Of a stretch of DNA of 64,000 nt, positions 1,051-15,074 are shown piece after piece. The stretch spans positions 1-64,000 of the forward strand of contig NZ_NPEV01000023.1 in NCBI RefSeq assembly GCF_003258835.1. The letters are read 5' to 3'. The DNA is from Rhodobium orientis. GTDB lineage: Bacteria; Pseudomonadota; Alphaproteobacteria; Rhizobiales; Rhodobiaceae. Both the position numbers and the translations under genes were made by a program. Position 1 is the stretch's first letter. Each line of letters starts with the position of its first letter. The notes below the pieces were generated by a model. That model made no database searches, was not told where the DNA came from, and saw nothing but the letters and a program-made list of their open reading frames with translations.

Positions 1051-1992
1051 ATGACAAACCAAGAATGGTCCACGCGAGCGGACTGCTACTTAAAATTTTG
1101 CAGGAACTCCAAAAATCTCTCGGACCTCAGCATGTCGGCGTATCGACAGGATTTAGATGAACTTATCCGATATGCAAATTCGTGCTCGATCCGGGAATTC
1201 TTCTGCCCAGACTCCATTTATGTCTACATCGAGTATCTCAGGGAGTCGCGAAACCTAAAGCCGTCGACCATCCGACGACGCCTTGCCTGCGTTCGGACAT
1301 TTGCCAGATGGCTTGAAAAAGAAGAGCTGATCAGCGAGTCACCATTTCCCAGAATGGACCTGAAACTCAGGGTTCCAAAGCAACTTCCGAGGGCGCTCGG
1401 CCGCGATCAAATCACGCGCATTGCCCGGCATATTCCCGACAATCCTAGCAGTGGAACACCAGCCACCCGCCATTTAGGCAGCCTGGTCGATCGAACAACG
1501 GCCCTGTCGATCAAGCTGATGCTCGCGACAGGCATTCGGGTCAGCGAACTGTCGCGTATCAATGTCGGAGATGTGTCGGCTGACGCCAAAAGTATCCGGA
1601 TTTTTGGCAAGGGGTCACGGGAACGGACCGTGTTCGTCGGAAGCAAGACCCTTGCCGATGACATTCGACGCCATATCGCCGAGCTGGACTGCGGCGACCA
1701 CAATGCCCCTCTCGTGCTCAACAATCGAGGCGGACGCCTTTCTCCCCAAACGCTCCGACTACGACTGCGCCGCCTCTCCTCCGACCTTGGCATCTCACCC
1801 CACGTAACGCCGCATCGATTTCGACACACCGCTGCCACGACGCTCATCGAGGAAGGTGTCGACATTCGTTTCGTTCAGCGGCTTCTCGGCCACTCAAGCA
1901 TTGCGACGACCGAGCTTTATACCCACGTCAACGACCGCTCACTGCGCACGGCGATCGAAACGGCCAACGCTATGGAGAAAATCGGATTCTGA
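1051..1992 (+). CDS. XerC/XerD-like tyrosine recombinase
   Basis: A 313-residue tyrosine site-specific recombinase. The N-terminal SAM-like core-binding domain covers about residues 5-95 and the catalytic domain about 110-305. All catalytic residues are present: R163 (TGIRVSEL), K187 (FGKGSRER), H255 and R258 (HRFRH), H281 (LLGHSS) and Tyr290 (TTELYTHV). The ATG at 1051 follows a purine-rich ACGGAAAG. The stop codon (1990-1992) touches the left arm of a Xer-like inverted repeat, so the enzyme sits directly beside its likely target. Upstream, 805-1050 is non-coding. The protein is closer to XerC/D than to phage integrases, and the dedicated host XerC/D would be elsewhere. I infer that it inverts the neighbouring 5.4-kb segment. 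Confidence 0.93.
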   Translation: MTNQEWSTRADCYLKFCRNSKNLSDLSMSAYRQDLDELIRYANSCSIREFFCPDSIYVYIEYLRESRNLKPSTIRRRLACVRTFARWLEKEELISESPFPRMDLKLRVPKQLPRALGRDQITRIARHIPDNPSSGTPATRHLGSLVDRTTALSIKLMLATGIRVSELSRINVGDVSADAKSIRIFGKGSRERTVFVGSKTLADDIRRHIAELDCGDHNAPLVLNNRGGRLSPQTLRLRLRRLSSDLGISPHVTPHRFRHTAATTLIEEGVDIRFVQRLLGHSSIATTELYTHVNDRSLRTAIETANAMEKIGF

Positions 1993-1996
1993 ATAT

Positions 1997-2015
1997 CGAT
2001 AACTTGGAATTATGC
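1997..2015 (+). repeat. Left copy of 19-bp inverted repeat; Xer-like recombination core
   Basis: The sequence CGATAACTTGGAATTATGC occurs here and, exactly inverted, at 7383-7401; similarity ends abruptly on both sides. It contains ATAA-CTTGGAA-TTAT, the arm-spacer-arm layout of Xer sites (dif arms end in ATAA and begin TTATG), within 11-bp arms at 1992-2002 and 2010-2020. The ATG of the following gene (2012-2014) lies inside the repeat, and GGA five bases upstream may act as a weak ribosome-binding site. Confidence 0.85.
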
Positions 2016-3973
2016 ATACGATCTCGATCATTGTGCCTCATCACAGCAATAGGGCGGCATTGGACCATTGCCTTAGGTCCATCAGAAACACCGTACCCAA
2101 AGGTACGGAGATTCTTGTGGTGGCTAATAATAGCCGGATATCAGAAACAGCAGCGGAAGCGGCCACAGAGTTCGCAAAAGTGATAAAGGTCGAAGAAAAC
2201 CTAGGGTACTCTGGAGCGGTAAATCTAGGTGCCGAAAAAGCCAGCGGTAAAATTCTAATATTTTGCGACGACGACGTTATCGTTACCCCCGGCTGGTTTG
2301 AGAACATGCTCGAGTTTCATTTGAGCTCCTCACGAATAGGCGCGACCGCTGTTAAGCTCATTAGTCCGTCTACGGGCCGCGTGGTGGATTTCGGAATAGC
2401 ATTCACGGAGTATAATGCGCCACATCTGTTTCAAGACGTGCTGCCGAGTCATCCTCTAACGCTTATCCGACGACGAGTACAAGCTGCTTGCTCCGCACTA
2501 ATGATGATAGACAAAGAGCTATTCGCCGAAGTTGGCGGGTTTTCGGTGCCTAATCAGTCTCATTATTCGGATTTAGAATTGTGTCTCAAGATAAAGCAAA
2601 AGCAAAAACAAATTTGGGTGTTGGGTGACGTAACCTGTTATCATAAAAGTAGTTATGTGACAGACGAGCGCGCTGCTTACAAAAGTGGAGAGATTAAATG
2701 TGATGCAAAGGCTGGTTTTTTTAAAGAGTTTGGCCATTTAATTGAAACCGACCTAGATAATTACTACAAACTTTTTATCAAGGCGGAAGGCCTGCAAGAT
2801 CTTATGCGCAACACCGAATTTTCTCTCGTCAGTCTAGCAAACGTGATGAACCCCAAATGGTATCATAATATTATTTCAAAATACTTCTCCATAAATTCGA
2901 TATATGATCTACCGACTTATCAACGTGATAACGCCAGTTTATCATTAATGAAATTTCTTGGTAGTAATTTTGTTCACAAAAATTCTCCATTAATATATTT
3001 TGTTGATAGATACAAAAGCCTCAAAGAAAACGCATACTGGTTTGGTAACAGAGTAAGCAATTCTGATGTAATTTTTGACAGAAATGGGAATGTTTTTCCT
3101 GTTGAAATTCTTCTAAAAGAGCAAGAATGGTCGACGGATGAGCTCTGCCGAACTTCGGCAAAATCGAATGACGAAGTTGCTGTAAAACCTACACTCCAGA
3201 AAAGTCTTGATGAGGCAAAATCTGTTCTGAAGGAATATTCAAACACAAGCGCTGGAAATGATAAAACCTTTAGAGCGTTTACCCACTTAGTAAACTCCAT
3301 CCCAGCGCTCCGAGCCCATCGAGATTACGTCGAAGCGAACGAATGGGGCTTCGGCGACCGGGCTTTTCACATGATGTGGTTAAATATAATTAACGAGCTT
3401 TCCATGAGCGAAAAACCGATCACCGCGCTCGAAATAGGTGTTTTTAGGGGCCAAATAATCTCTCTTTGGCACCTAATCGCCGATTTGCTTGGGATACAGC
3501 TGCACTCCATTGGGATTACGCCGCTTGCTGGAACGAACGAAGAAAAGGGCACAAATTCGACGGCCGGTTCTCTCAAGAAAGCGAAAAGTTTCTACCCAGA
3601 TTCCGACTATATTGATGACATACGCCGGATATTTTCAGATTTCAGATTAGATATCGACCGGAATGAATTGATACGAGGATACTCGCAGGACCCAACCGTG
3701 AAGTCTAAGATTTTAGGAAAGAAATTTGACATAATCTATATTGATGGCGATCATCGGTACAAATGCGTGAAATCAGACATTGAATATTATCAAAACCTCG
3801 TTAACGATAACGGGTACTTAATAATCGATGACGCCGGCTGCGACATGCAAGGGAACGCTTTCTGGAAGGGCATTCCATCGGTTACAAAGGCTTTGAAAGC
3901 CATCGACAGTCAACAGTTTGAAAACCTCTTCAACGTTGGACACAACCGGGTTTTTCTAAAAAGACAGTTCTAA
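2012..3973 (+). CDS. Glycosyltransferase family 2 fused to a class I methyltransferase-like domain
   Basis: A 653-residue fusion. Residues about 3-270 are a GT-A glycosyltransferase of family 2, with the SIIVPHHSN start, NLGYSGAVNLG and the metal-binding CDDDVIV motif; it resembles rhamnosyl-type transferases. A poorly recognisable linker follows. Residues about 470-640 resemble Methyltransf_24-type SAM domains (ALEIGVFRGQ, FDIIYIDGDHRY, GYLIIDDAG). I infer that it decorates a surface glycan; the acceptor is unknown. Base composition is clearly AT-richer than the flanking element, a sign of separate acquisition. The stop codon overlaps by 4 bp the stop of the convergent gene at 3970-7386. The start codon lies inside the 19-bp inverted repeat. 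Confidence 0.88.
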   Translation: MHTISIIVPHHSNRAALDHCLRSIRNTVPKGTEILVVANNSRISETAAEAATEFAKVIKVEENLGYSGAVNLGAEKASGKILIFCDDDVIVTPGWFENMLEFHLSSSRIGATAVKLISPSTGRVVDFGIAFTEYNAPHLFQDVLPSHPLTLIRRRVQAACSALMMIDKELFAEVGGFSVPNQSHYSDLELCLKIKQKQKQIWVLGDVTCYHKSSYVTDERAAYKSGEIKCDAKAGFFKEFGHLIETDLDNYYKLFIKAEGLQDLMRNTEFSLVSLANVMNPKWYHNIISKYFSINSIYDLPTYQRDNASLSLMKFLGSNFVHKNSPLIYFVDRYKSLKENAYWFGNRVSNSDVIFDRNGNVFPVEILLKEQEWSTDELCRTSAKSNDEVAVKPTLQKSLDEAKSVLKEYSNTSAGNDKTFRAFTHLVNSIPALRAHRDYVEANEWGFGDRAFHMMWLNIINELSMSEKPITALEIGVFRGQIISLWHLIADLLGIQLHSIGITPLAGTNEEKGTNSTAGSLKKAKSFYPDSDYIDDIRRIFSDFRLDIDRNELIRGYSQDPTVKSKILGKKFDIIYIDGDHRYKCVKSDIEYYQNLVNDNGYLIIDDAGCDMQGNAFWKGIPSVTKALKAIDSQQFENLFNVGHNRVFLKRQF

Positions 3974-6900
3974 GGGCATGGAAAATTTAAACGCTCCCTA
4001 GAATAGGTGCTTTGCGGTACATATTGCGAATGAAAAAGGCTGAATTCGATGTCGGCCATTGCTAATATGGTCGATACAGCTTCTCGCCTTTTGTTCCGCC
4101 TAATTAGAGATTTATCCCTCGCAAGAGACTGAGCCTGGAAGAGGCGCAAAGTGACGGCATAATCTTCAAAAAACCAATCAAACCGATCCTCGATCTCTGC
4201 GTTCTCGACCACAGAAACAAGCTCCTCGAACGCTCTGCTTAGTTCTCCGATCGCCTTTTCCTTTTCTTCGAGGATTTGCCAAATCTTTGCTCCAGCGTGA
4301 AATGCCACCCAATATACCTGTCCAAGATCGAAACGGCTGGAAATATCCTTCGCATGTGCAACGAACTCAAGTGCCTCTTCAGCAGCAAGCAGATCCTCAC
4401 CCTCCAACATAAAGATAATGGCACCCAGGATCGATAATTTGGCCTCATGAAAAGGATCTAGACTAATCTGGCAATTGAGGATTTCTCGCCTGATCAATTC
4501 GAGCGCTTCCTCCCTCTTTCCCTCTAAAATCAGAATGTGGGAATGATGCAGCTTAGCCACCGCGCGATTGGTTATTAGTTCGTGAGCTGGGAGAAACATT
4601 TCATCGAACATTGATAAAGCATTTTGCCACTCTGCCAAAAGCTGTGGAGTTTCGGCGGCAAAGCCATAATGAATATAGCCGTTATCTATATGCTGTTGGA
4701 ATTCAATGTATTGACACTTGCCAGCGCGGGCCGCCTTCATTGCGACTAAGCCGACTTTCCTTGCTTCAAGACTTCTCCTATGTCCTAGCAGCGCAGCGCA
4801 AAGGCGATTAGCAATAAGCCCAATAGCCTCTTGTTTCGAATTTTCTGTCAAAAACTGCAGGTCTTCTACCGAAGAAAACGCAGCCTTAAGTACGCGCATT
4901 GCCTTTTGATCTTGGCGCATGCCCAACAATAATGAACCAAAGCGAACACACAGCATCACGTATTCCGAGCCGGCATCCCTCAATTGTTTAGTTCTAACAT
5001 GCAATTCAGAATGGATAAGTTGGTACAATTCCGCTGCCCGTTCATACCCGAGAACGGGTCGCAATCGATACGCAGTATGATCGAATATGCGTATGACGTA
5101 GCCAGCTGAGAACCAAGAAAGAAGGCGATCAAGCTCTAAGCGTACCAAGGGTTCTATCAATGGAAGCAAGTCGGATGCATCTACTCTGCCTTGATCCAAG
5201 TGGTCAAAAAGCGTTGATATTTGTGACTTGGCTAGTCGATTGAATCTGATCTCCTGCAAGGTAAATTGAGGAAGATAAAGCATCTGCCAGCGACTGTCTC
5301 TGAAGAACACTTCCAGGTCACTGTCTACTTCTTTTGACGCTGGACGTTTTGCCCGCATGAGGCGCAGCAGAGTCTGATGGCGGAACTCGATTGCTCGACC
5401 GGCATCTTCCACAACTAGTCCAAGCTCAATGAGCCTAGAAACGTCAGGCAGCTCAATTCCTAAAGCATCGAAGGCCATACTCGGAATCAACAGGAGCTTA
5501 CTCAACAGATCAACGATGAGCCATTGCTTAGAGCTCAGTGTGTGCTCGAATGCCTCAAATCGCCGGGAAAGCAGGACGTCCAATCGGCGAGTGTTGTTGC
5601 CAGTAACTAGTGAAGCAACTTCTCGCTTGACCAGCTTGTAGTCCGAGACATAATACCCAATATTGTCATGTGATATGGCACCGCGTTGTTCAAGGAGCAA
5701 AATAAACTGCTCTACAAAGAGCGGAGTCAACTCTAGCTCTTTCAGCAATGATTCAGCCAACCCCGAGTAAATTTTCGTGAAACTCTCGAGCGCGCTGCCA
5801 TCACCAACGCGTAGACAATTGTTGAGAAATTCCCGCGCCTCAGAATTGGACAGCTCACCAAGTTCGATAGATGACACCTGCTCTGGATGAGTGCTGCCTA
5901 AGTCAAGTAACCGCCGAAGATACAGACTAGACAAAGAGCCAGGCACAACAAGATCTGTATTGAGTGCCTGCACAACAACAATCTGGTGATTACTATCGAG
6001 CAGCTTGGTCGTCAAACCGTTAAAAAACTGTATCGTTGTCGAATCTAAGCCTTGAATATCATCTAATATTATGCCCAACCGTTGCCCCGCCAGCGAAGCT
6101 AAAAAGGCATCTTCGCATTCGCGAATGTTTGCTGAAGGCGGCCAGGAAGGATCGTACAAAAGTCGGTCTATGACACGACGAGTTTCTACTTTTTCTCTCC
6201 ATGGTGCATTCAATTCGTTGTCGGCCTCGTCAGGAGCTTGGCGTGGAAGGCCATATCGTGCGGACAAGTACCTACGAAAGAACTCATCAAAGCTAGTCAT
6301 CCGGGCTAGCTCTCCACGGAGATAGATAATGCGATATCCCAGTTTGTAGAGACGGTTCCTTAACTCATAGAGCATTCGTGACTTTCCACTTCCACTCCGA
6401 CCGTAGACGGTGTGCAAGATCGGCCTATCGCGGAAAGAAACGATACGCTCAAACTTTCTCAGGCTCGAAATGTAAGAATTACCAACCAGCGGTGAACGAA
6501 AAAGTGAACTAACGGAGACCGAAGACGGTAGATAACAACACGAAACGTTACGACCCGCGCCATTGACCGTCCAGCGTGGCAGTTGAATTTTCTTACCGGC
6601 AGCAAAGGTGCGAAAATGCACGCGTCGCCGGATTACCTCGCCAGCAGAAAGCGTCACTTCAAATGAATAATCATTCTTTTCAATTTGCTCGTCGAGAAGC
6701 TCGAAATGGCGCAAAATCGTATTACTTGCAAATCGAACGATGACTCTCTCAACGCGGTGGTGCGTTGAATTGTAGAGGTAGAAGTCAAGAGCGAAGGTTT
6801 CCAAGACGTTCAGCAGCCCAATTTCGTCGCATCGCTTGTCAGAATCTTCGAATAAGGACTCACTCATGCCACGGTCCGTTAGATAAGTTTCCGGATCGCG

Positions 6901-7386
6901 AGTGAGTCTTGAGGTGACGGCAACATTTCCTGCATATCGTGCTCGACGAGAAGTAAAAGTAGGAAAGAACTCCCTCAACAATGAAGGGAAACGTAATATG
7001 ATCGCTTCCAGGCTGTCATCATGAAAAATTCGGACTCTAATGTTTGTTTGGTCCTCGAACGACGCGAGATGCTCAATTGCGTTAGAGTTGATCCGGCTAT
7101 ACGAGAAGAAGAGTATTTCGGACAAATTGTCGGCAACCGCCATGACAAGTGAAGGGCTAAGTGTTCTTATTGACAGCGGAGCGCTGTGGTTTTTTGCCTC
7201 TGCAGCAACATCCCTACGGTCCAAGCGGAAGAAATCTCTACCCCTATCCCAGGAATGAGGCGTCTTAACCCAACGCCCCCCCTCCATCTTTTGAAGAATC
7301 TGGGAAACGAGTTCTTCGAAATATAGCCCGTCTCGACCGGCGGTGTTTACGAACCTCTGCCAATGCTCTTCTTTAAGATGGCGCAT
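3970..7386 (-). CDS. Mrr-like nuclease / STAND ATPase (Avs-like antiviral candidate)
   Basis: A 1,138-residue protein in three parts. Residues 20-140 form an Mrr-like PD-(D/E)XK nuclease: FEELVSQIL, WDRGRDFF with D51, and E63/K65 in AAEAKN. A central STAND-type ATPase has Walker A GRSGSGKS (about 329-336) and Walker B IILDDIQGLD (about 439-448). The C-terminal 600 residues are helical, TPR-like repeats. Nuclease-STAND-repeat order is that of Avs antiviral sensors, which cut DNA after their repeats bind a phage protein; this copy is shorter than most Avs proteins. Its ATG (7384-7386) lies inside the right 19-bp repeat. Composition is AT-richer than the element core. Specific Avs subtype and target cannot be told from sequence alone. 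Confidence 0.8.
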   Translation of the reverse strand: MRHLKEEHWQRFVNTAGRDGLYFEELVSQILQKMEGGRWVKTPHSWDRGRDFFRLDRRDVAAEAKNHSAPLSIRTLSPSLVMAVADNLSEILFFSYSRINSNAIEHLASFEDQTNIRVRIFHDDSLEAIILRFPSLLREFFPTFTSRRARYAGNVAVTSRLTRDPETYLTDRGMSESLFEDSDKRCDEIGLLNVLETFALDFYLYNSTHHRVERVIVRFASNTILRHFELLDEQIEKNDYSFEVTLSAGEVIRRRVHFRTFAAGKKIQLPRWTVNGAGRNVSCCYLPSSVSVSSLFRSPLVGNSYISSLRKFERIVSFRDRPILHTVYGRSGSGKSRMLYELRNRLYKLGYRIIYLRGELARMTSFDEFFRRYLSARYGLPRQAPDEADNELNAPWREKVETRRVIDRLLYDPSWPPSANIRECEDAFLASLAGQRLGIILDDIQGLDSTTIQFFNGLTTKLLDSNHQIVVVQALNTDLVVPGSLSSLYLRRLLDLGSTHPEQVSSIELGELSNSEAREFLNNCLRVGDGSALESFTKIYSGLAESLLKELELTPLFVEQFILLLEQRGAISHDNIGYYVSDYKLVKREVASLVTGNNTRRLDVLLSRRFEAFEHTLSSKQWLIVDLLSKLLLIPSMAFDALGIELPDVSRLIELGLVVEDAGRAIEFRHQTLLRLMRAKRPASKEVDSDLEVFFRDSRWQMLYLPQFTLQEIRFNRLAKSQISTLFDHLDQGRVDASDLLPLIEPLVRLELDRLLSWFSAGYVIRIFDHTAYRLRPVLGYERAAELYQLIHSELHVRTKQLRDAGSEYVMLCVRFGSLLLGMRQDQKAMRVLKAAFSSVEDLQFLTENSKQEAIGLIANRLCAALLGHRRSLEARKVGLVAMKAARAGKCQYIEFQQHIDNGYIHYGFAAETPQLLAEWQNALSMFDEMFLPAHELITNRAVAKLHHSHILILEGKREEALELIRREILNCQISLDPFHEAKLSILGAIIFMLEGEDLLAAEEALEFVAHAKDISSRFDLGQVYWVAFHAGAKIWQILEEKEKAIGELSRAFEELVSVVENAEIEDRFDWFFEDYAVTLRLFQAQSLARDKSLIRRNKRREAVSTILAMADIEFSLFHSQYVPQSTYSRERLNFPCP

Positions 7387-7401
7387 AATTCCAAGTTATC
7401 G
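7383..7401 (-). repeat. Right copy of 19-bp inverted repeat; Xer-like recombination core
   Basis: Exact reverse complement of 1997-2015. Read on the minus strand it gives CGATAACTTGGAATTATGC, followed directly by the second codon of the STAND gene. Both genes in the 5.4-kb segment therefore share the last 15 bases before their ATG, the ATG itself and the next base. Outer flanks differ between the two copies. On the minus strand TTCACA lies 17 bp upstream of GATAAC in the repeat, a possible weak promoter that would give a nearly leaderless transcript; the left copy lacks that -35. Confidence 0.85.
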
Positions 7402-7551
7402 TTTGTTGATATGCATTTGTGAAATCGGCACGTGGCCGGAAGGTACGGTTAGCACAAGTTGAGACAAATCGCGATGCCTGACACGCGCCTCTCTGTGCGG
7501 AAAACGGTGGCGCTACGCTTTCGAGTGGTTGGGCGCGGCTTTGCGCGCAAA

Positions 7552-7585
7552 CGCCCGGCGGTCTTGCCGCCGGGCGCTTTTTTTT
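7552..7585 (+). terminator. Rho-independent terminator, rightward
   Basis: A GC-rich hairpin (CGCCCGGCGG, loop TCTTG, CCGCCGGGCG) is followed by a run of eight T on the plus strand. No plus-strand gene ends nearby, and both neighbours are transcribed leftward. It would end a rightward transcript that starts at or before the tyrosine recombinase and crosses the 5.4-kb segment. Confidence 0.8.
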
Positions 7586-7599
7586 GGCGTTACCGGACG

Positions 7600-9318
7600 C
7601 TATGCAGCTTTGAAGCGCTTTTTTAGGTCCTTACCGCGCTCTACGGCGTCGATGCCGCTGCGCTTGGTGTATCCGCTCATGGGAAACGCCATGTAGCGCG
7701 GCTGCCAGTCGGGCGTATGCGGCTTGCGGGTGCCGTCGATGTGATCGCGGATGATCTTCTTTTGCACCTTCGCCGTTGAGGTGACGTGAGCATCGGCGGT
7801 GGCCTTTCCGGCGACTTCCTTCACAGCGGCGTTGATCGCTTCCTTGTCCTTCCACAGATCGAAAAAGGTGTCATCCGGCGTCCAGTGCGCGGCCATATCG
7901 GTTGACCGGAGAATGCCGAGCGCTTCGACGAGCGCGCTGCCACTCGACAGGGTTTCGGCGACGACGAACGTCAGGATGCGCCGGACGCTGTCGTCGTCGA
8001 GGTCCACGAGCTTAGCAAAGACGGACACAAGATCATGCGACCGACCGTAGTCGTGCTGGCGGTAGACGAGCGTGTCGCTGTCGTCCTGTTCGATACCAAG
8101 CAATTGCCGCACCGCCTCGCGTTCGGCAGCGGATGCCGCCTCAGCCGTGCTGGCGGCGAGGCTTTCGCCAATGGCCTCGCTGTTCGCCTTTTGCGGTTCG
8201 GCGCAGACCGTCCATAGGGCCGATCCGGCAATGATCTGCGCCGTGGCCACCCGAAGCGCAAGCGCGGGATCGCTCAGGAGATCGAGCCGCACGGCGGCAT
8301 GGCGGTGCAGGTCGAGATAGTTCTGCATGGCCTTGGTGAGTTCGGGCCGTTCGCAAGCCTGCTCGTCGGTGTTGTCTGCTTCCGCCTTGTCGCGGCGCTT
8401 GGCTTCCTTCTCGGTTATGTAGCCCTCGTGGACCGTGATCTCGCCGTCCTTGGCGATCTGGATATAGACGCGGCCTCCGTCCTTCTTTGTCGCCTTGCGG
8501 TACTCCCAACTGGCGAAGAACGCGCCGACTTCCGTGATTTCCACATCCTGCCAGCCCTTGGCGAGGATGTCGTCTTTGAGCTTGGCAATGGCCTCGTTCT
8601 GCAAAGACCAGAAGGCGTCCGTGTCGTCGAAATACCGCTCGTCACCGAAGAGATCGGCAACGATCGCGCCGACATACTCTTCGATCTCGAACAAGGCGTT
8701 CTCGACCGGGATTTGCTGGCCGCCGAAGAGCCACTGGCGCAGCGCGTAGCCGTGCGGCGCGTATGCGTCCTCGTCCTTGAACAGCGCCCACCAGTCCTGT
8801 TGCTGGCGCTTTGTGGCAAGGGTCATCGTCCGCAGCGTCTCGGCTCCGATGTCGCCCCTGCGAAAGGCGGTCAGGATCGGCCCGATGATGTTGGCAATGG
8901 CCAAGCGTTGTTTGACGAGCCGCTCGGTCACGCCGAACTCGCTGGCAATGTCGGCAACGTCCTTGCCTTCCCCTACCAGCGCGGCGAAGGCCTTGTACTG
9001 GTCGATCTCGTCCATCGGCAGGCGGGCGACATTTTCCGCAAGCGAGGCCTCAATGGCTTTCGCATCGTCGCCGTCCTCCATGACGATGCAGGGCACGGGC
9101 TGTGCCTCGGCTTCCTCGGCCAGTTTGGTCAAGGCGTGATAGCGGCGCTGTCCCGCGACGATCTCAAAGCCTTCGCAGTTGGGCCGCACCAGAAGCGGCT
9201 GCAACAGGCCGAGCGAGCGGATGCTCGGCACGAGATCGGCGACATCCTTGCCGCCCTTCTTGCGGACGTTGACCTTGGCGGGTTTCAGTTGGTCGAGGGT
9301 CAAATGGGTGAGTTTCAT
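7600..9318 (-). CDS. ParB/Srx-fold nuclease-domain protein (ParB-like, element-borne)
   Basis: A 572-residue ParB/RepB/Spo0J-family protein. The N-terminal half has the family motifs: LGLLQPLLVRP, GFEIVAGQRRYHAL, the box II-like SLAENVARLPMDEIDQY, then a helix-turn-helix (VADIASEFGVTERLVKQRLA). The C-terminal 350 residues are not assignable. The ATG at 9318 has an AGGAG seven bases upstream, which decides against an in-frame ATG 42 bases earlier. It lies 62 bp after ardC in the same direction, a pairing frequent on alphaproteobacterial plasmids and integrative elements. There is no adjacent ParA, so a role in partition is less sure than a regulatory or CTPase role in the element. Confidence 0.85.
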   Translation of the reverse strand: MKLTHLTLDQLKPAKVNVRKKGGKDVADLVPSIRSLGLLQPLLVRPNCEGFEIVAGQRRYHALTKLAEEAEAQPVPCIVMEDGDDAKAIEASLAENVARLPMDEIDQYKAFAALVGEGKDVADIASEFGVTERLVKQRLAIANIIGPILTAFRRGDIGAETLRTMTLATKRQQQDWWALFKDEDAYAPHGYALRQWLFGGQQIPVENALFEIEEYVGAIVADLFGDERYFDDTDAFWSLQNEAIAKLKDDILAKGWQDVEITEVGAFFASWEYRKATKKDGGRVYIQIAKDGEITVHEGYITEKEAKRRDKAEADNTDEQACERPELTKAMQNYLDLHRHAAVRLDLLSDPALALRVATAQIIAGSALWTVCAEPQKANSEAIGESLAASTAEAASAAEREAVRQLLGIEQDDSDTLVYRQHDYGRSHDLVSVFAKLVDLDDDSVRRILTFVVAETLSSGSALVEALGILRSTDMAAHWTPDDTFFDLWKDKEAINAAVKEVAGKATADAHVTSTAKVQKKIIRDHIDGTRKPHTPDWQPRYMAFPMSGYTKRSGIDAVERGKDLKKRFKAA

Positions 9319-9380
9319 GGGGTTTCTCCTTATTGCTTTGGGTTGAAATGAACGGTGCACAAGCGCACCCGTGAACGGCC

Positions 9381-10310
9381 CTAGCGGGGCCGCTCTGGGG
9401 CAGGCTCGGATGCTTTGCGGGGTTCGGTTTGCAAGCCGTGCAGGAACTCGGCGGCTTTCGCGGCTTGTGCTGCCGCCTTGAAGACATACTTCTTGTCGTT
9501 CCGGAGCGCGGTCAGCCAGCCCTTGATGTAGAGGGCATGGTCGTCACGCGGCGTCTGCACGATGCCGATGGCCGAACACAGGAAGGCTGCACCAAGCTCG
9601 GCGACCAGTTCCTCGAATGCGTACTTGTCCCGCTCGGCCCCGGTTTTTGCCTTGTCGCGGTCAAGGCGGTGCGCCGCTCCCGTCCAGTGGGTCAGCTCGT
9701 GCAGCAGCGTTGCGTAGTAGTTCTCCGTGGCGCTTGCCTGTTTGGTCTCCACAAAGGCCTTGGTGTCCGGGATTTGAATGAAATCCTCCACCCGGTGGTA
9801 GAACGCCTTGGCGCCGCCGTGACGGATATCGGCTCCGGTATTGGCGCAGAAGTGGTCCGCCGCTTGGATGCGGGTCACAAGGTCGATATCGCTACGGTTG
9901 ACGAGGTTGGCGCGGTCGTATCCGTCAACCTGATCGGCATTGAAAACGGTATAGGTCTTGAGCATGGGAACGGCGCGTTCTTCCGTTTCGCCGCTGTCGG
10001 TCTGCTCTTCCCGGAGCAGCGTCTTATAGAAGATGATCGGGCTTCCCTTTTCGCCCTTGCGTACGCTCGCGCCGCGCTCCTTCCACTGGTTGAAGGTCGC
10101 CCAATGGCTGGACGAAAAACCCTTGTCCTGCTGGTCGAACCAGAGGGAGGGGATATTGATGCCCTGGTATCGATGTTCGGTGATCGGGTTGAGCGGCAGT
10201 CCTTGCGCTGCCAGTGCCGCAAAGGGCGGCTGGTAGTCGGCAAGGTCTACCGTCTCCAGAACGGCAATGATCTTGCTGGTGACCTCCTGATAGATATCTT
10301 TCTTGGCCAT
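9381..10310 (-). CDS. ArdC-like antirestriction protein (ssDNA-binding domain plus zincin metallopeptidase)
   Basis: A 309-residue protein. The N-terminal half is the ArdC-type ssDNA-binding domain (INIPSLWFDQQ, ASVRKGEKGSPIIFYK). The C-terminal half is a zincin-like peptidase with the HELTHWTGA metal-binding motif and downstream EELVAELGAAFLC. ArdC proteins protect incoming single-stranded DNA from host restriction during conjugation. The start at 10310 is preceded by GAGGA. It heads the minus-strand ardC-parB pair, and two terminator-like hairpins lie upstream. Confidence 0.87.
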   Translation of the reverse strand: MAKKDIYQEVTSKIIAVLETVDLADYQPPFAALAAQGLPLNPITEHRYQGINIPSLWFDQQDKGFSSSHWATFNQWKERGASVRKGEKGSPIIFYKTLLREEQTDSGETEERAVPMLKTYTVFNADQVDGYDRANLVNRSDIDLVTRIQAADHFCANTGADIRHGGAKAFYHRVEDFIQIPDTKAFVETKQASATENYYATLLHELTHWTGAAHRLDRDKAKTGAERDKYAFEELVAELGAAFLCSAIGIVQTPRDDHALYIKGWLTALRNDKKYVFKAAAQAAKAAEFLHGLQTEPRKASEPAPERPR

Positions 10311-10417
10311 GGTGTCCTCGCTTGGGGTCTGGGGTTCAAATCCGGCGAAGCTCTCAGGAGAGAAAACCCGCCGCGCATGAACCCTTGGCCAGCGCCGAGC
10401 GTCCGAAATCCCGGAAA

Positions 10418-10452
10418 CAAAAAAGCCGCCGCCGGAGAACCGACGGCGGCGA
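10418..10452 (-). terminator. Terminator-like hairpin in the ardC leader
   Basis: On the minus strand a stem of GCCGCCG pairs with CGGCGGC and is followed by TTTTTTG. It lies about 110 bp upstream of the ardC start in the sense direction, so it could be an attenuator or the end of an upstream transcript. Confidence 0.55.
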
Positions 10453-10646
10453 CCGCAACGGACGCTATGACCGCAAGCAGGGCGCCCCAAAGCCTTGCCG
10501 CTTGCGGCGCCGAAGGCGGTCCGGGCCACACGGGAGGCACATGGTGCCGAATGGAGCGGGCCAGCCCGGACCAAGGCTATTGGATCAGGCGACCCTGCGG
10601 CGGTGTAAGCTGGCAGATGGGGTCCAAGCGCGTGCAACGCGCGAGC

Positions 10647-10677
10647 AAAAAACAAGTGGCGGCGACCTGCCGCCGCG
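10647..10677 (-). terminator. Second terminator-like hairpin upstream of ardC
   Basis: On the minus strand GGCGGC-AGGTC-GCCGCC is followed after a short gap by TTGTTTTTTG. It repeats the arrangement at 10418-10452 about 200 bp further upstream. Confidence 0.5.
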
Positions 10678-10857
10678 TCTCTTCCTGTCCGGGATCGTCA
10701 CCCGCATGGGCCGAAACCGCCCGCCGGCGTGCCGAAGGGCGGGTTCGGTGGAGCGAAGCGCAATAGAGCCCGCAAGACAGCCAAACACCGTGAATGTAGG
10801 GCTTTCTGGGTATGAATTTGGATCTTAGTCCGAAATCATCACCATTTTCGGGTATTT

Positions 10858-11080
10858 ATGGGTAAGTTATTGGATATGACCTTCCGCATCGACACGTTGG
10901 CCACCACCCCGGAAATCTTCGCTCTCATTGCCGAGATCGACGAATTCAAGGCCGCGTTGCGAGCGATCGGAACGCTGGCGCCACGTGGCGACCATCGAAA
11001 GCATCAGCTCTTCCACTCGCATCGAGGGCGCGAGGCTCAGTGACAGCGACGTGGAGCCGTTGCTCTCCAATTTGGATATC
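10858..11080 (+). pseudogene. Fic-family protein, frameshifted N-terminal remnant
   Basis: The first frame (ATG at 10858 or 10876) reads MTFRIDTLATTPEIFALIAE and on to IGTLAP, the typical start of a Fic-family protein. The match then moves to another frame (VATIESISSSTRIEGARL, SDSDVEPLLSNLDI), which is the conserved segment preceding the Fic core. The HPFxxGNGR catalytic motif is absent, and similarity stops near 11080. The gene is therefore both frameshifted and truncated, a decayed toxin or AMPylase gene left in the defence region. Confidence 0.75.
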
Positions 11081-11162
11081 CGCCCGGTGTGCTATCTCTT
11101 GGGGGGGTCGAGAACGAGATGCTCCAAGCAGAGCATTTGTTGCGCAAACTCAAAGCCTGAAA

Positions 11163-11189
11163 TGGGCGGAGAGCCCACATTCGCTGCGC
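11163..11189 (+). repeat. Short degenerate repeat, copy 1
   Basis: A 27-base stretch beginning TGGGCGGAGA and ending TTCGCTGCGC matches 17974-18000 with three mismatches. Both copies lie in gene-free scars beside recombinases or broken genes, in the same orientation. Origin unknown; perhaps debris of a common mobile element. Confidence 0.55.
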
Positions 11190-11468
11190 ACGGGGCCGAC
11201 GACCGCTTCGCCGGACAAAACTTGCTTCCGGCATCGTAGAGGCCAATGACTGCAAGCGGCCCAGAGCTTACACAGACTTCCGGTAAACCGGGTAGGAATT
11301 GAGCGTTTGCTTCGGTTGTGGCAAACGGCTACTTCGAAGCTCAGAAGCCGGTTGTCTACTAAAAGTAAGCATCCGGCGCCACAGCGGACCTTCTGGCCTT
11401 GACGCGCGTGGTCGCCTAAATTCTGCACGCGGCTGGGACAAAATTTAGAACATGGTAAGAAGCCCGGT

Positions 11469-14400
11469 ATGAATACCAGTCTTACTAAAGTCGGCCATTG
11501 GATCTCCGATAAGCTCATCCAAATAGCGGAAGCGTTGCGCCTGAGATTCGCTTCGCCCGTGGGGCCAGCGAAATTCGTCGATCTCGCCCCAACCGATGAG
11601 GCTGACCAAGGAGGGGTGTATTCGGCTGCATTGAAGTTCGCGACCGACAGTCCGGACGTATCTAACATCGCGCTCACCGGGCCTTATGGCTCTGGCAAGA
11701 GCAGCATCATCCGATCGTTCTTGAAGTCCTATCCCCGCCAAGCCCTGCACATCTCTCTCGCCGCCTTCTTACCGGAAGCAGGCGATGAGCGACGCACGGT
11801 GACCAAACAGGAGATTGAGCGGAGTATCCTCCAGCAACTGCTCTATGGCGCAGATGCAAACAAACTGCCGCTCTCGCGTTTCAAGCGTATCCAATCGCCA
11901 GGATTTTGGTCGATTTTCCTATCACTCTACATTCTTACTGGGTTGCTCGCTCTCTGGCATGTATTCCATAATCGTGCAGCGATTTTTGAGGGTTCATATT
12001 TCGAACCCTTCGATCTCACGAACTGGCTCGATATCTCCGTAGCCGCTTTCGCGCTGATCTTTCTCTGGTCTGCGATTCATCACTTCTACGTCGCCAGCTT
12101 CGGCGTGTCACTTAAAAGCATTTCGCTGAAGGACATCGAGATACGGCCGTCGTCGGACGACCAGGATTCGATCCTTAATCGTCACCTGGACGAGATAGTC
12201 TACTTCTTCCAGTCGACGCGTTACGATCTCGTTATCGTGGAGGATCTCGATCGCTTCGAGGATTCCGACATCTTCGTCACCCTTCGCGAGATCAACAGTC
12301 TCGTGAACGGCAATGTGGGTGTGAGACGCCAGGTCAGATTCCTCTACGCGCTACGCGACGACATGTTCGTCAACACTGACCGGACCAAGTTCTTCGAATT
12401 TATCATCCCCGTCATCCCGATTATTAACAGCTCTAACTCGATTGACATGGTGCTCGCGCAGGGCAAGCGGCTGGAACTGGACGGAAGGCTCGATCAGCAG
12501 TTTCTGCGCGAAGTGTCTCGTTACCTAAGCGATCTCCGGCTGATCCACAACATCTTCAACGAGTACGCAATCTATGTCGCAAATTTGGAAACCGATGGCG
12601 AGAACGTACTCGACGCCACGAAGCTTCTCTCCGTGCTGATCTATAAGAATGTCTATCCTAGGGATTTCGAACGGCTCCATCGCGGCGAAGGTCATCTTGC
12701 CAAAATTTTAGGGCGCAAAGACGAGCTCATCGCTGCGCGTGAACGGAGCTATCGATCCGAGATCGCCGAACTCGAACGCGATGTCGAAAGGACCGAACAG
12801 GAGATCGCGAAGAATTTGAGAGAACTCAAACGCATTTATGCGATGGCCCTTCTCGAAAAGATGCCGCCCAATATCGCAGGGTTAAGCCTGCCGGGACAGT
12901 CCTATGTAACGCCCGCTAAATTATCCGAGCACAAAGATTTCGAACAATTCATTACGGCGCCAGCCCTTTACTACAACACTCTTAATGGTGGACAGCGTCA
13001 GTTCCAGGATGCTGCCTTCCAAAAAAGTGTCGATCCCGAAGCAAGTTATGCCGAACGGGCGCGAAGCATCGAGCACAAGGCCGACGAGCATAAGAAGGCT
13101 GCGCATCGGAGGATCGCCCATCTGAGAAGTGAGGTCAAAGCGATCCGGACTTGCAAGTTCAATGTCTTGCTGCGGTCCAGTACGCAAGAAGTCGAAGGCC
13201 TTTTCGAAAATCTCGGCGACGGCGGTGAACTCGCCCGGTTCCTGCTCTTAGAGGGCTATCTCGATGATAGCTACTACCAGTATACGTCCTTGTTCCATTC
13301 TGGACGGCTTTCGCCAAACGACAACAAGTTCCTGATACAAATAAGGGCTTTCCTCACTCCTGAGCCCCTTTTCCCAATCGACAACCCGAGTGAAGTCATC
13401 GCGGGAATGAGGGAGGATGATTTTGGCCTCGATTATGCGCTGAACGTCCGGCTCGTCGACGCGCTCCTGGAGAGCGAGGAGCACAAGGGGCGGCTCGGGA
13501 AGGTCTTCACATATCTTTCGAACGAGTTTCCAAACCAGCAGGAATTCTTCGAAGCCTATTACGCGACGGGATCGCACGTTGGCGAGTTTTTGAGGCAGCT
13601 CGTTGACGCTTGGCGCAACTTCGTACCCGCGGCCATTGAGAGCTCCTCCGCGGTCTTGCATATCGCGAGGCTCATCGAACATCTTCCGCCGGCCATGCTG
13701 GCTCGCGAGCGCGAGGAACACCCCGAGCTACGGACATTCGCGGCCGGCAACCTCCGGGACATTCTCGACCTCTTGGAGGGGGTTGATCCGGTCAAGCTTG
13801 AAGAGTTGTGTATCGAGACGAAGGACCTTGCTGCGATCGATGGATATCCGAACGTCGTTCGTAAACTGTACGAGCTCGGCCATTATCGCCTGAGCGAAGC
13901 GAACTTAGGCTACATTTTCGGCTCAATCCTCGGAGAAGATACCGGCCCGGCCTTGCGTAAGCGATATTACTCGAGGGTGCGAAACTCCGGAGCCGAACCC
14001 CTCCTCGACCGGGTGGAAAGCGATTTCGAAGCGTACTTCGCGAACGTACTGCAGGATATGGACGATGACGATGAGGAGGATATCGACGCAATACTGGCTG
14101 TGATGTCCCGCGATGAACTCAATGCCGAAGAGATAGAAACCTTCGTCCTGCGCCAAACGAAACTTTTGCCATCGCTCGAAGAAGTACCCGAGCGGTATCG
14201 GGCCATTGTGGTCCGCGGGGCCCAGATCGCTCCCACTTGGTCTAATTGCCTCGCTTATTTCCGATCAGAGACTTTCGATAGCGACGCTCTTATCACCTTC
14301 CTTGATGATGACGAGGTCCGCGCCACTCTTCTGGAAACGCCGATTCCGGTAACAAAAGAAACATTTCCTCTCCGTCAATTCCTGATCGAAGCAGATGATC

Positions 14401-15074
14401 TTGAAGATGAGGCATATCGCGCATATGCGCGGGCCCTACCCAAACAATTCGAGAAATTTCCCGAATCTTTAAGCGCTCGAAAGCGTCGGATACTTATCGA
14501 TGAGCGGCGTGTCACGTTCAATGCCCAGAATTTGGCTGCGCTCGACGGCGAGGTCGACCTTCAAACGGTATTCGTCGCCCAGAACATCGCCTCCTATCTT
14601 CGCGACCCCAGCTCTTTCTCGATCGACGATGACTTCCGCGAGCGATTGCTTGCCACCGATATCACGAACGGCGAGAAGCGTGCTATCATTGATTTGATGG
14701 ACTTGAGCGGTCTTCCCGGCCTTCCCGAGCGTGCCGGCATTGTCGGGCCGATCCTGTTGCGGACAAATGGCGCTCTGCCTTCACTCACACCTGACATCGT
14801 CAAGGCAATTATCGTGAACGCTAAGCCATTAAGCACACGGGTCCAGTTACTCAATCTCCTCCACGAAACGCTCGATAAGAACGATGTTCGTGAGGTCTTG
14901 GGAGAGCTTCCTTACCCATATTCGAAAATCCAAACCGGATATGCACGCCCCACGCTCAAGAGAACGAATGAAAACAGCGAACTTGTGAGTTGGTTGGATG
15001 AGCGCGACATCATCTCTTCGGTAGGAAAGCCGTTCTGGTCGAACGATATCATGGTTAATCTATATCGGTCATAA
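11469..15074 (+). CDS. YobI-like membrane-anchored P-loop NTPase (defence candidate)
   Basis: A 1,201-residue protein. Walker A is GPYGSGKSS at about 71-79 and Walker B is LVIVEDLDRFED near 254-265. Two hydrophobic segments (about 145-167 and 188-210) lie between them, the KAP/YobI layout that fixes the ATPase at the membrane. A coiled coil follows at about 430-470. The remaining 700 residues are helical and not assignable. YobI-like NTPases are found in defence islands, and KAP-type ATPases are parts of systems such as Qat; the trigger and effector for this one are unknown. It stands alone, with no plus-strand gene closely following, and its codon use resembles the element. It could be a single-gene abortive system. 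Confidence 0.78.
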   Translation: MNTSLTKVGHWISDKLIQIAEALRLRFASPVGPAKFVDLAPTDEADQGGVYSAALKFATDSPDVSNIALTGPYGSGKSSIIRSFLKSYPRQALHISLAAFLPEAGDERRTVTKQEIERSILQQLLYGADANKLPLSRFKRIQSPGFWSIFLSLYILTGLLALWHVFHNRAAIFEGSYFEPFDLTNWLDISVAAFALIFLWSAIHHFYVASFGVSLKSISLKDIEIRPSSDDQDSILNRHLDEIVYFFQSTRYDLVIVEDLDRFEDSDIFVTLREINSLVNGNVGVRRQVRFLYALRDDMFVNTDRTKFFEFIIPVIPIINSSNSIDMVLAQGKRLELDGRLDQQFLREVSRYLSDLRLIHNIFNEYAIYVANLETDGENVLDATKLLSVLIYKNVYPRDFERLHRGEGHLAKILGRKDELIAARERSYRSEIAELERDVERTEQEIAKNLRELKRIYAMALLEKMPPNIAGLSLPGQSYVTPAKLSEHKDFEQFITAPALYYNTLNGGQRQFQDAAFQKSVDPEASYAERARSIEHKADEHKKAAHRRIAHLRSEVKAIRTCKFNVLLRSSTQEVEGLFENLGDGGELARFLLLEGYLDDSYYQYTSLFHSGRLSPNDNKFLIQIRAFLTPEPLFPIDNPSEVIAGMREDDFGLDYALNVRLVDALLESEEHKGRLGKVFTYLSNEFPNQQEFFEAYYATGSHVGEFLRQLVDAWRNFVPAAIESSSAVLHIARLIEHLPPAMLAREREEHPELRTFAAGNLRDILDLLEGVDPVKLEELCIETKDLAAIDGYPNVVRKLYELGHYRLSEANLGYIFGSILGEDTGPALRKRYYSRVRNSGAEPLLDRVESDFEAYFANVLQDMDDDDEEDIDAILAVMSRDELNAEEIETFVLRQTKLLPSLEEVPERYRAIVVRGAQIAPTWSNCLAYFRSETFDSDALITFLDDDEVRATLLETPIPVTKETFPLRQFLIEADDLEDEAYRAYARALPKQFEKFPESLSARKRRILIDERRVTFNAQNLAALDGEVDLQTVFVAQNIASYLRDPSSFSIDDDFRERLLATDITNGEKRAIIDLMDLSGLPGLPERAGIVGPILLRTNGALPSLTPDIVKAIIVNAKPLSTRVQLLNLLHETLDKNDVREVLGELPYPYSKIQTGYARPTLKRTNENSELVSWLDERDIISSVGKPFWSNDIMVNLYRS

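What the first reader, a model, noticed from the sequence alone, without database searches (positions are those of the whole stretch)
1051..7585. Possible invertible switch: a Xer-like recombinase toggling a glycosyltransferase and an Avs-like STAND nuclease
Seen: the exact 19-mer CGATAACTTGGAATTATGC occurs at 1997-2015 and inverted at 7383-7401, bounding a 5.4-kb AT-rich segment with two convergent genes. Both ATG codons lie inside the repeats, so inversion would keep both genes intact and only exchange their upstream contexts. A complete tyrosine recombinase ends at the left repeat. The repeat has the ATAA-spacer-TTAT layout of Xer sites. A rightward terminator (7552) stands beyond the segment with no plus-strand gene of its own; it fits a transcript that starts with the recombinase and crosses the segment, sense for one gene and antisense for the other. 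Inferred: cells alternate between surface-glycan change and intracellular nuclease defence.
Basis: partly seen in the sequence, partly recalled or inferred. Interest (0 to 1): 0.93.

Follow-up and report, generated by a model that had tools for sequence, protein, structure and literature searches.

The report
Xer-like switch flipping paired immune genes
A recombinase gene sits beside a DNA segment with two opposed genes, an enzyme and an immune-type protein; in relatives from three bacterial phyla the same layout recurs, the segment is caught flipped between two strains, and whole gene pairs are swapped in and out at the same sites, so bacteria seem to carry an undescribed family of flip-switches for two-gene, defence-like modules.

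Summary
An exact 19-bp inverted repeat bounds two convergent genes (GT2-methyltransferase, STAND ATPase), and both ATGs lie inside the repeats. The repeat has no other copy in the genome. It is not a shared start context. Across 397 genomes of the order, inverted site pairs occurred in 8 genomes, all recombinase carriers. I collected 30 such segments from Pseudomonadota, Campylobacterota and Bacillota. Each has identical sites within a pair, two convergent gene sets with starts at the sites, and the recombinase next door.

Inversion has happened in nature. Two Aliarcobacter cryaerophilus plasmids with the same recombinase and near-identical flanks (99.8-99.9%) carry the segment in opposite orientations, with breakpoints inside the 16-bp site. 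Cargo is also exchanged at the sites, and the same enzyme/partner pairs recur across phyla. The partner is most often a STAND ATPase; one segment holds a ThsA/TIR (Thoeris-like) pair.

Best explanation: a site-specific inversion switch that swaps the two genes of an immune-type module between two expression contexts, and that can exchange modules. The expression effect is inferred, and exclusive toggling is unproven. No description was found in the open literature searched.

The parts
1051..1992 (+). Xer-like tyrosine recombinase (313 aa), probable invertase; stop codon 6 nt before ATAA of the left site
   Evidence: Pfam Phage_integrase E 5.7e-37; closest to XerC/XerD models but far below their cut-offs; catalytic R163, K187, H255, R258, H281, Y290 invariant in 13 homologs; tree
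1997..2015 (+). left (recombinase-proximal) recombination site, ATAA-CTTGGAA-TTAT core; contains ATG of gene 1
2012..3973 (+). gene 1, enzyme: GT2 glycosyltransferase fused to a Methyltransf_24 domain (653 aa)
   Evidence: Pfam Glycos_transf_2 E 4.1e-20, Methyltransf_24 E 3.3e-08
3970..7386 (-). gene 2, partner: STAND-type AAA_16 ATPase (1138 aa)
   Evidence: Pfam AAA_16 E 1e-08, nSTAND6 weak
7060..7329 (-). N-terminal Mrr-like PD-(D/E)XK nuclease domain of gene 2 (tentative)
   Evidence: Mrr_cat E 0.0029, below cut-off; FE..DRGRD..AEAK motif aligns with Mrr-STAND partners of L014, L015, L024
7383..7401 (-). right (distal) recombination site, inverted identical copy; contains ATG of gene 2
7552..7585 (+). 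intrinsic-terminator-like hairpin plus T run; optional, not conserved in the family

Best explanation
This is one member of a family of site-specific inversion switches. A Xer-like tyrosine recombinase recombines two identical, inverted ATAA-N7-TTAT sites that flank a segment with two convergent genes or gene sets. Because each gene starts inside or just after a site, inversion leaves both genes intact but exchanges their upstream contexts. One context is the recombinase side (read-through from the recombinase gene in D-type loci such as this one, or the recombinase promoter region in U-type loci). The other is the outer side. The two genes form one module: an enzyme and an immune-type partner, usually a STAND ATPase. 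The switch therefore probably sets which partner, or what ratio of partners, a cell makes. Cassettes can also be exchanged at the sites. Shown: the architecture, its conservation, one natural inversion, and cargo exchange with boundaries at the sites. Inferred: that this recombinase is the catalyst, that inversion happens in this organism, the expression effect, and the defence role.
For: Inversion: L197 versus L198, flanks 99.8-99.9% identical and collinear, segment 99.9% identical and inverted, breakpoints in the 16-bp site, recombinase protein the same accession. Site/recombinase co-occurrence 8 of 8, hypergeometric P about 1e-14. 30 segments, spacers identical within every pair, 53 of 60 arms with a start codon within 30 nt of ATAA and 21 with ATG exactly at +13. 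Cargo swap at the sites: G301/G218, A. cryaerophilus/A. faecis, S. salivarius plasmids. Same pairs across phyla: ligase+STAND, SHMT+STAND, GNAT+MT. ThsA E 2.7e-97 with a TIR partner. Flanks outside the U-proximal and D-distal sites are AT-rich and promoter-like compared with the other side (P 0.002-0.045). Homologous pairs occur in both orientations.
Against: No reads or second strain for the window itself. Only one clean same-species inversion; the other same-species loci seen (P. inhibens, S. salivarius) keep one orientation. No expression data. In streptococci both outer flanks carry -10-like elements next to the site, so both genes may be transcribed in either state. The window's own distal flank has no clear promoter. 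In Thoeris both genes are thought to be needed together (from memory), which argues against a strict either/or switch. Inversion could in principle be made by host XerCD.
Confidence: 0.78

Rival explanations
1. Integron-like capture platform: the recombinase and its adjacent site acquire and exchange convergent two-gene cassettes, and inversion is a by-product of having inverted identical sites rather than the regulated function.
For: Cargo replaced with boundaries at the sites while recombinase and flanks stay 91-98% identical; same pairs move between phyla; in two-segment loci the U and D spacers differ, as independent docking sites would need.
Against: Two inverted sites with the recombinase outside cannot excise a circle; no tandem cassette arrays were seen; start codon placement in both arms is what an inversion switch needs. 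Homologous recombination in the flanks could also replace cargo.
Confidence: 0.35
2. Fossil or static architecture: the repeats are conserved because they hold translation start signals, and inversion is now rare or absent.
For: Repeats overlap start codons, and in Bacillota also ribosome-binding sites; several same-species plasmids keep one orientation.
Against: Natural inversion between A. cryaerophilus strains; repeats extend outward beyond the start codon (GTTACG) and both spacers of a pair are always identical although spacers differ between loci; recombinase catalytic residues invariant.
Confidence: 0.1
3. Strict bistable toggle between two independent strategies (surface glycan change or nuclease defence).
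For: Enzymes of possible surface chemistry (GT, D-Ala ligase-like, carbamoyltransferase) against STAND effectors; U-distal flanks lack promoter-like sequence.
Against: Partners are conserved as pairs across phyla and include a ThsA/TIR pair, so they look like one system; D-distal sites have promoter-like flanks, so both genes may be expressed.
Confidence: 0.2
4. Chance inverted repeat beside an unrelated phage or plasmid integrase.
For: Nothing found.
Confidence: 0.01

Closest known systems
Ureaplasma mba/UU376 and UU172/UU171 inversion loci (PMC3047005)
   Same: Short inverted repeats, inversion alternates expression of two oppositely oriented genes
   Different: Surface antigens with a shared N-terminal part rather than whole genes starting in the site; recombinase not encoded beside the segment as far as the passages read show; no exchangeable enzyme/STAND pairs
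Phage Mu G segment (Gin) and related Hin/Pin systems (from memory); PinQ inversion in E. coli (PMC12529663)
   Same: Whole-gene segment inverted next to its recombinase, outer context decides expression; PinQ links inversion to phage resistance
   Different: Serine recombinases; tail-fibre or adhesin genes; not swappable immune modules
Pneumococcal cod locus hsdS inversions by PsrA (PMC4948785, PMC7096588)
   Same: Tyrosine recombinase and inverted repeats in a defence-type locus
   Different: Inverts among hsdS specificity genes of one methyltransferase system; here two complete, different genes change places
Integrons
   Same: Tyrosine recombinase platform next to its site, gene start abutting the site, exchangeable cargo
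   Different: Inverted pair of identical sites, two-gene convergent cassettes, no arrays; recombinase far below the integron-integrase model cut-off
XerC/XerD at dif
   Same: Protein family and general site layout (inverted arms around a short centre)
   Different: Separate clade from chromosomal XerD in the tree; 7-nt instead of 6-nt centre; local inverted pair

Membership tests
Site-specific DNA inversion switch (phase-variation inverton) | Identical inverted sites flanking a segment, recombinase gene adjacent | tested here: met
Site-specific DNA inversion switch (phase-variation inverton) | Both orientations exist in close relatives or one population | tested here: met
   L197 versus L198, for a relative and not for the window itself; contig ends in G681 are suggestive
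Site-specific DNA inversion switch (phase-variation inverton) | Orientation changes expression | not testable with these tools
   only promoter-like composition differences
XerC/XerD housekeeping recombinase | Passes the curated equivalog cut-off | tested here: not met
   202 bits against a cut-off of 335 for XerC, 194 against 330 for XerD
Integron integrase/integron | IntI model cut-off and attI/attC cassette array | tested here: not met
   110 bits against a cut-off of 265; no arrays seen around 30 segments
Avs (anti-phage STAND) | Match to Avs profiles | tested here: not met
   no PADLOC hit for the window protein
STAND NTPase | P-loop STAND/AAA_16 domain with C-terminal repeats | tested here: inconclusive
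   AAA_16 above cut-off and a GRSGSGKS P-loop in the sequence; nSTAND6 only weak, and the C-terminal part of the window protein has no Pfam repeat match
Thoeris (for L192 only) | ThsA (SIR2-STALD) with a TIR ThsB | tested here: inconclusive
   ThsA E 2.7e-97; TIR partner only weakly ThsB (3e-07)

The most novel reading that the evidence does not exclude
A widespread plug-and-play platform that stores two-gene immune modules in split, convergent form between inverted sites that double as translation starts. A dedicated Xer-like recombinase flips each module to reset which half is made, or in what ratio, and exchanges modules. Different 7-nt spacers act as addresses, so that two modules beside one recombinase flip independently.
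Probability: 0.4. Interest if true: 0.94.

Novelty: new variant of a known kind. Interest (0 to 1): 0.86.

Why it matters
DNA inversion is best known for surface antigens, flagella, pili and restriction specificity. Here it is tied to STAND-type and Thoeris-like modules in three phyla, on chromosomes, plasmids and a prophage-like contig. That makes testable whether bacteria hedge the cost of immunity by flipping parts of it. The recurrent enzyme/STAND pairs also nominate unknown two-gene defence systems, and the sites with matched spacers may give new orthogonal recombination tools.

Tried and rejected
Chance repeat: rejected. Shared start context: rejected. Genome scan with single-sequence peptide patterns and exact 19-mer scan of genome contigs: no hits. 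Genus G301 and its family searched for near relatives: only known carriers. G432: two contigs end in the same 99 bp of segment DNA, which at first looked like both orientations, but neither flank leads to the other segment end, so a repeat of 99 bp or more explains it equally well. G681: one contig ends exactly 141 bp after the point where the two flanks diverge, a common assembler k-mer size, as mixed orientations would give; suggestive only, since assembler and reads are unknown. Terminator as a family feature: rejected. Viral-contig scans for the sites: the other 17 of 18 and all 3 of 3 contigs had no matching inverted pair. Structure of the STAND N-terminus: pLDDT 33, useless; a deeper alignment was not accepted by the tool. 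PADLOC for most partners: no or weak hits. No paper describing the system among ten searches; preprints and most subscription papers are not in the library.

Full report
What was claimed and what is there. All of this is in the sequence. The repeat has no other copy in the window at up to 3 mismatches (0 expected) or in the rest of the 5.19-Mb genome at up to 2 mismatches. The segment has 46% G+C against 57% around it. The recombinase has the Phage_integrase and SAM-like domains and is nearest to XerC/XerD, but at 202 and 194 bits it falls far short of the curated cut-offs of 335 and 330. Gene 1 is a GT2 glycosyltransferase with a C-terminal methyltransferase domain; gene 2 is an AAA_16/STAND ATPase with a tentative Mrr-like nuclease domain.

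The same architecture is a family. In 397 genomes of the order, 11 carry a homologous recombinase at E 1e-45 or better. The site GATAACNNGNAATTAT occurs in both orientations in 8 genomes, and all 8 are carriers (hypergeometric P about 1e-14). Wider sequence around homologs from this order, the class, the phylum, plasmids and phage records shows the same thing again and again: an inverted pair of identical ATAA-N7-TTAT sites, 1.6-7 kb apart, next to the recombinase, around two convergent genes or gene sets. I collected 30 segments. In 53 of 60 arms a start codon with a long open frame lies within 30 nt of ATAA, and in 21 it is an ATG at exactly +13, as in both arms of the window. In Bacillota the repeats grow to 26-39 bp and take in a ribosome-binding site in the plasmid loci. 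In a tree of 43 recombinases the members with site pairs are spread over the whole tree, the window groups with L019 (99/93), and two chromosomal XerD proteins stand apart.

Two positions. A segment can begin at the recombinase stop codon (D type, as in the window; in L018, L084 and L089 the recombinase's own stop overlaps the site) or lie upstream of the recombinase start (U type). L020, L022 and L024 have both. The 7-nt centre is identical within each pair but differs between the U and D pair of the same locus in all three, and in L023, where the D segment shows only one site. If this recombinase needs matching centres, as Cre and other tyrosine recombinases do (from memory), the centre works as an address that keeps two segments independent. 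This is inference.

Inversion has happened. Plasmids pACRY43158 (L197) and pM830MA (L198) of two Aliarcobacter cryaerophilus strains list the same recombinase protein accession. Their flanks are 99.9% and 99.8% identical and collinear (L197 7974-8961 = L198 1-988; 12380-16886 = 4406-8909), while the segment is 99.9% identical and inverted (8942-12399 = 4425-969), with breakpoints inside the 16-bp site. This is direct evidence for a relative, not for the window. Among more distant members, the ligase/STAND pair is found with the ligase next to the recombinase in L018, L019, L024-U and L198 and with the STAND gene there in L197 and L200. In the draft genome G681 one contig ends exactly 141 bp after the point where two flank contigs diverge, as mixed orientations would give in an assembly graph; I treat this as suggestive only.

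Cargo is exchanged at the sites. G301 and G218 (same genus) are 97% identical over the recombinase and its two nearest sites and unrelated immediately beyond them on both sides, at equal site spacers. A. faecis shares 97.8% and 91% identical flanks with A. cryaerophilus up to the sites but has a GNAT/methyltransferase pair in place of STAND/ligase. Four plasmids of S. salivarius/S. equinus examined carry three different pairs at one place. Whether the recombinase does this, or homologous recombination in the flanks, is open.

What the pairs are. Gene 1 is usually an enzyme: GT2 or GT4, D-Ala-D-Ala-ligase-like ATP-grasp, carbamoyltransferase, PLP aminotransferase, SHMT-like, PEP mutase-methyltransferase, sulfotransferase, spermidine synthase, polyprenyl synthase. 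Gene 2 is most often a STAND ATPase, with Mrr, alpha/beta-hydrolase or SIR2 N-termini in some; otherwise a pentapeptide-repeat or unknown protein. Pairs stay together across phyla: ligase+STAND (Alphaproteobacteria, Campylobacterota, Bacillota), SHMT+STAND (Alphaproteobacteria, Streptococcus), GNAT-like+methyltransferase (Aliarcobacter, Streptococcus). L192 holds a SIR2 protein that matches ThsA at E 2.7e-97 and a TIR protein. So the two genes look like halves of one module. That speaks against two unrelated strategies and leaves room for a switch of ratio rather than a strict toggle.

Which side is driven. In the Pseudomonadota set and the prophage member L127, the 110 bp outside U-proximal and D-distal sites are more AT-rich and score higher for sigma-70-like hexamers than the opposite sides (U proximal vs U distal: AT P 0.002, score P 0.045; D distal vs D proximal: P 0.0055 and 0.0048). 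The STAND or pentapeptide gene is on that side in 12 of 15 segments (P 0.035; this count was made after seeing the data). D-proximal genes follow the recombinase stop directly and would be read with it. In streptococci both flanks have -10-like elements. The window's own distal flank shows no clear promoter. Expression is therefore inferred, not shown.

How it most likely works. The recombinase pairs the two inverted sites, exchanges strands in the common centre and turns the segment over. Translation starts travel with the genes, and the promoters or read-through stay outside. Each flip thus trades the expression contexts of enzyme and partner. Steps shown: layout, conservation, one natural inversion, cargo exchange. 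Steps inferred: catalyst, rate, expression outcome, defence function.

Known or new. Inversion switches with tyrosine recombinases are known. [quoted passage not shown] As far as I can tell, none has exchangeable two-gene immune-type modules, start codons built into the sites in both arms, and spacer-coded double segments. Ten literature searches found no description; preprints were not available. I rate it a new variant of a known kind, with a fair chance that it deserves a class of its own.

Noticed in passing
L017, L029, L033, L035, L036, L037 (about 100 bp upstream of the recombinase, locus position ~9885): A nested subfamily of the recombinase on Roseobacter-group plasmids has one palindromic site (GATAA...CCATTATCGTTAC) instead of a pair, and lies beside large defence clusters (Qat, TIR, SMC/nuclease genes); possibly a different use of the same enzyme.
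   Followed up: partly
L014:2900-9766: IS21-type genes sit between the N- and C-terminal halves of the STAND partner of a carbamoyltransferase, so this cassette is probably disabled.
   Followed up: no
L022:10662-12793: The two convergent genes share a 164-aa stretch at 99% identity (inverted duplication inside the segment), perhaps a recombination scar.
   Followed up: no
L094:8274, L095:6146, L097:8113: Solitary perfect or near-perfect sites followed by an ATG in genomes without a detected recombinase; may be remnants.
   Followed up: no
L127:9989-12515: A 1.6-kb segment (methyltransferase plus small membrane protein) with its recombinase lies between phage structural-type genes of a prophage-like contig.
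   Followed up: partly
window 7600-15074: ParB-like gene, ArdC-like zinc peptidase gene region and a YobI-type ATPase beside the switch suggest a plasmid or integrative element; only the ATPase region (from about 11,200) matched known plasmids at 82-88% (Roseovarius, Paracoccus, Mameliella).
   Followed up: no
L198:1937-4407: The STAND gene intact in L197 is split into two frames in L198, the inverted plasmid.
   Followed up: no
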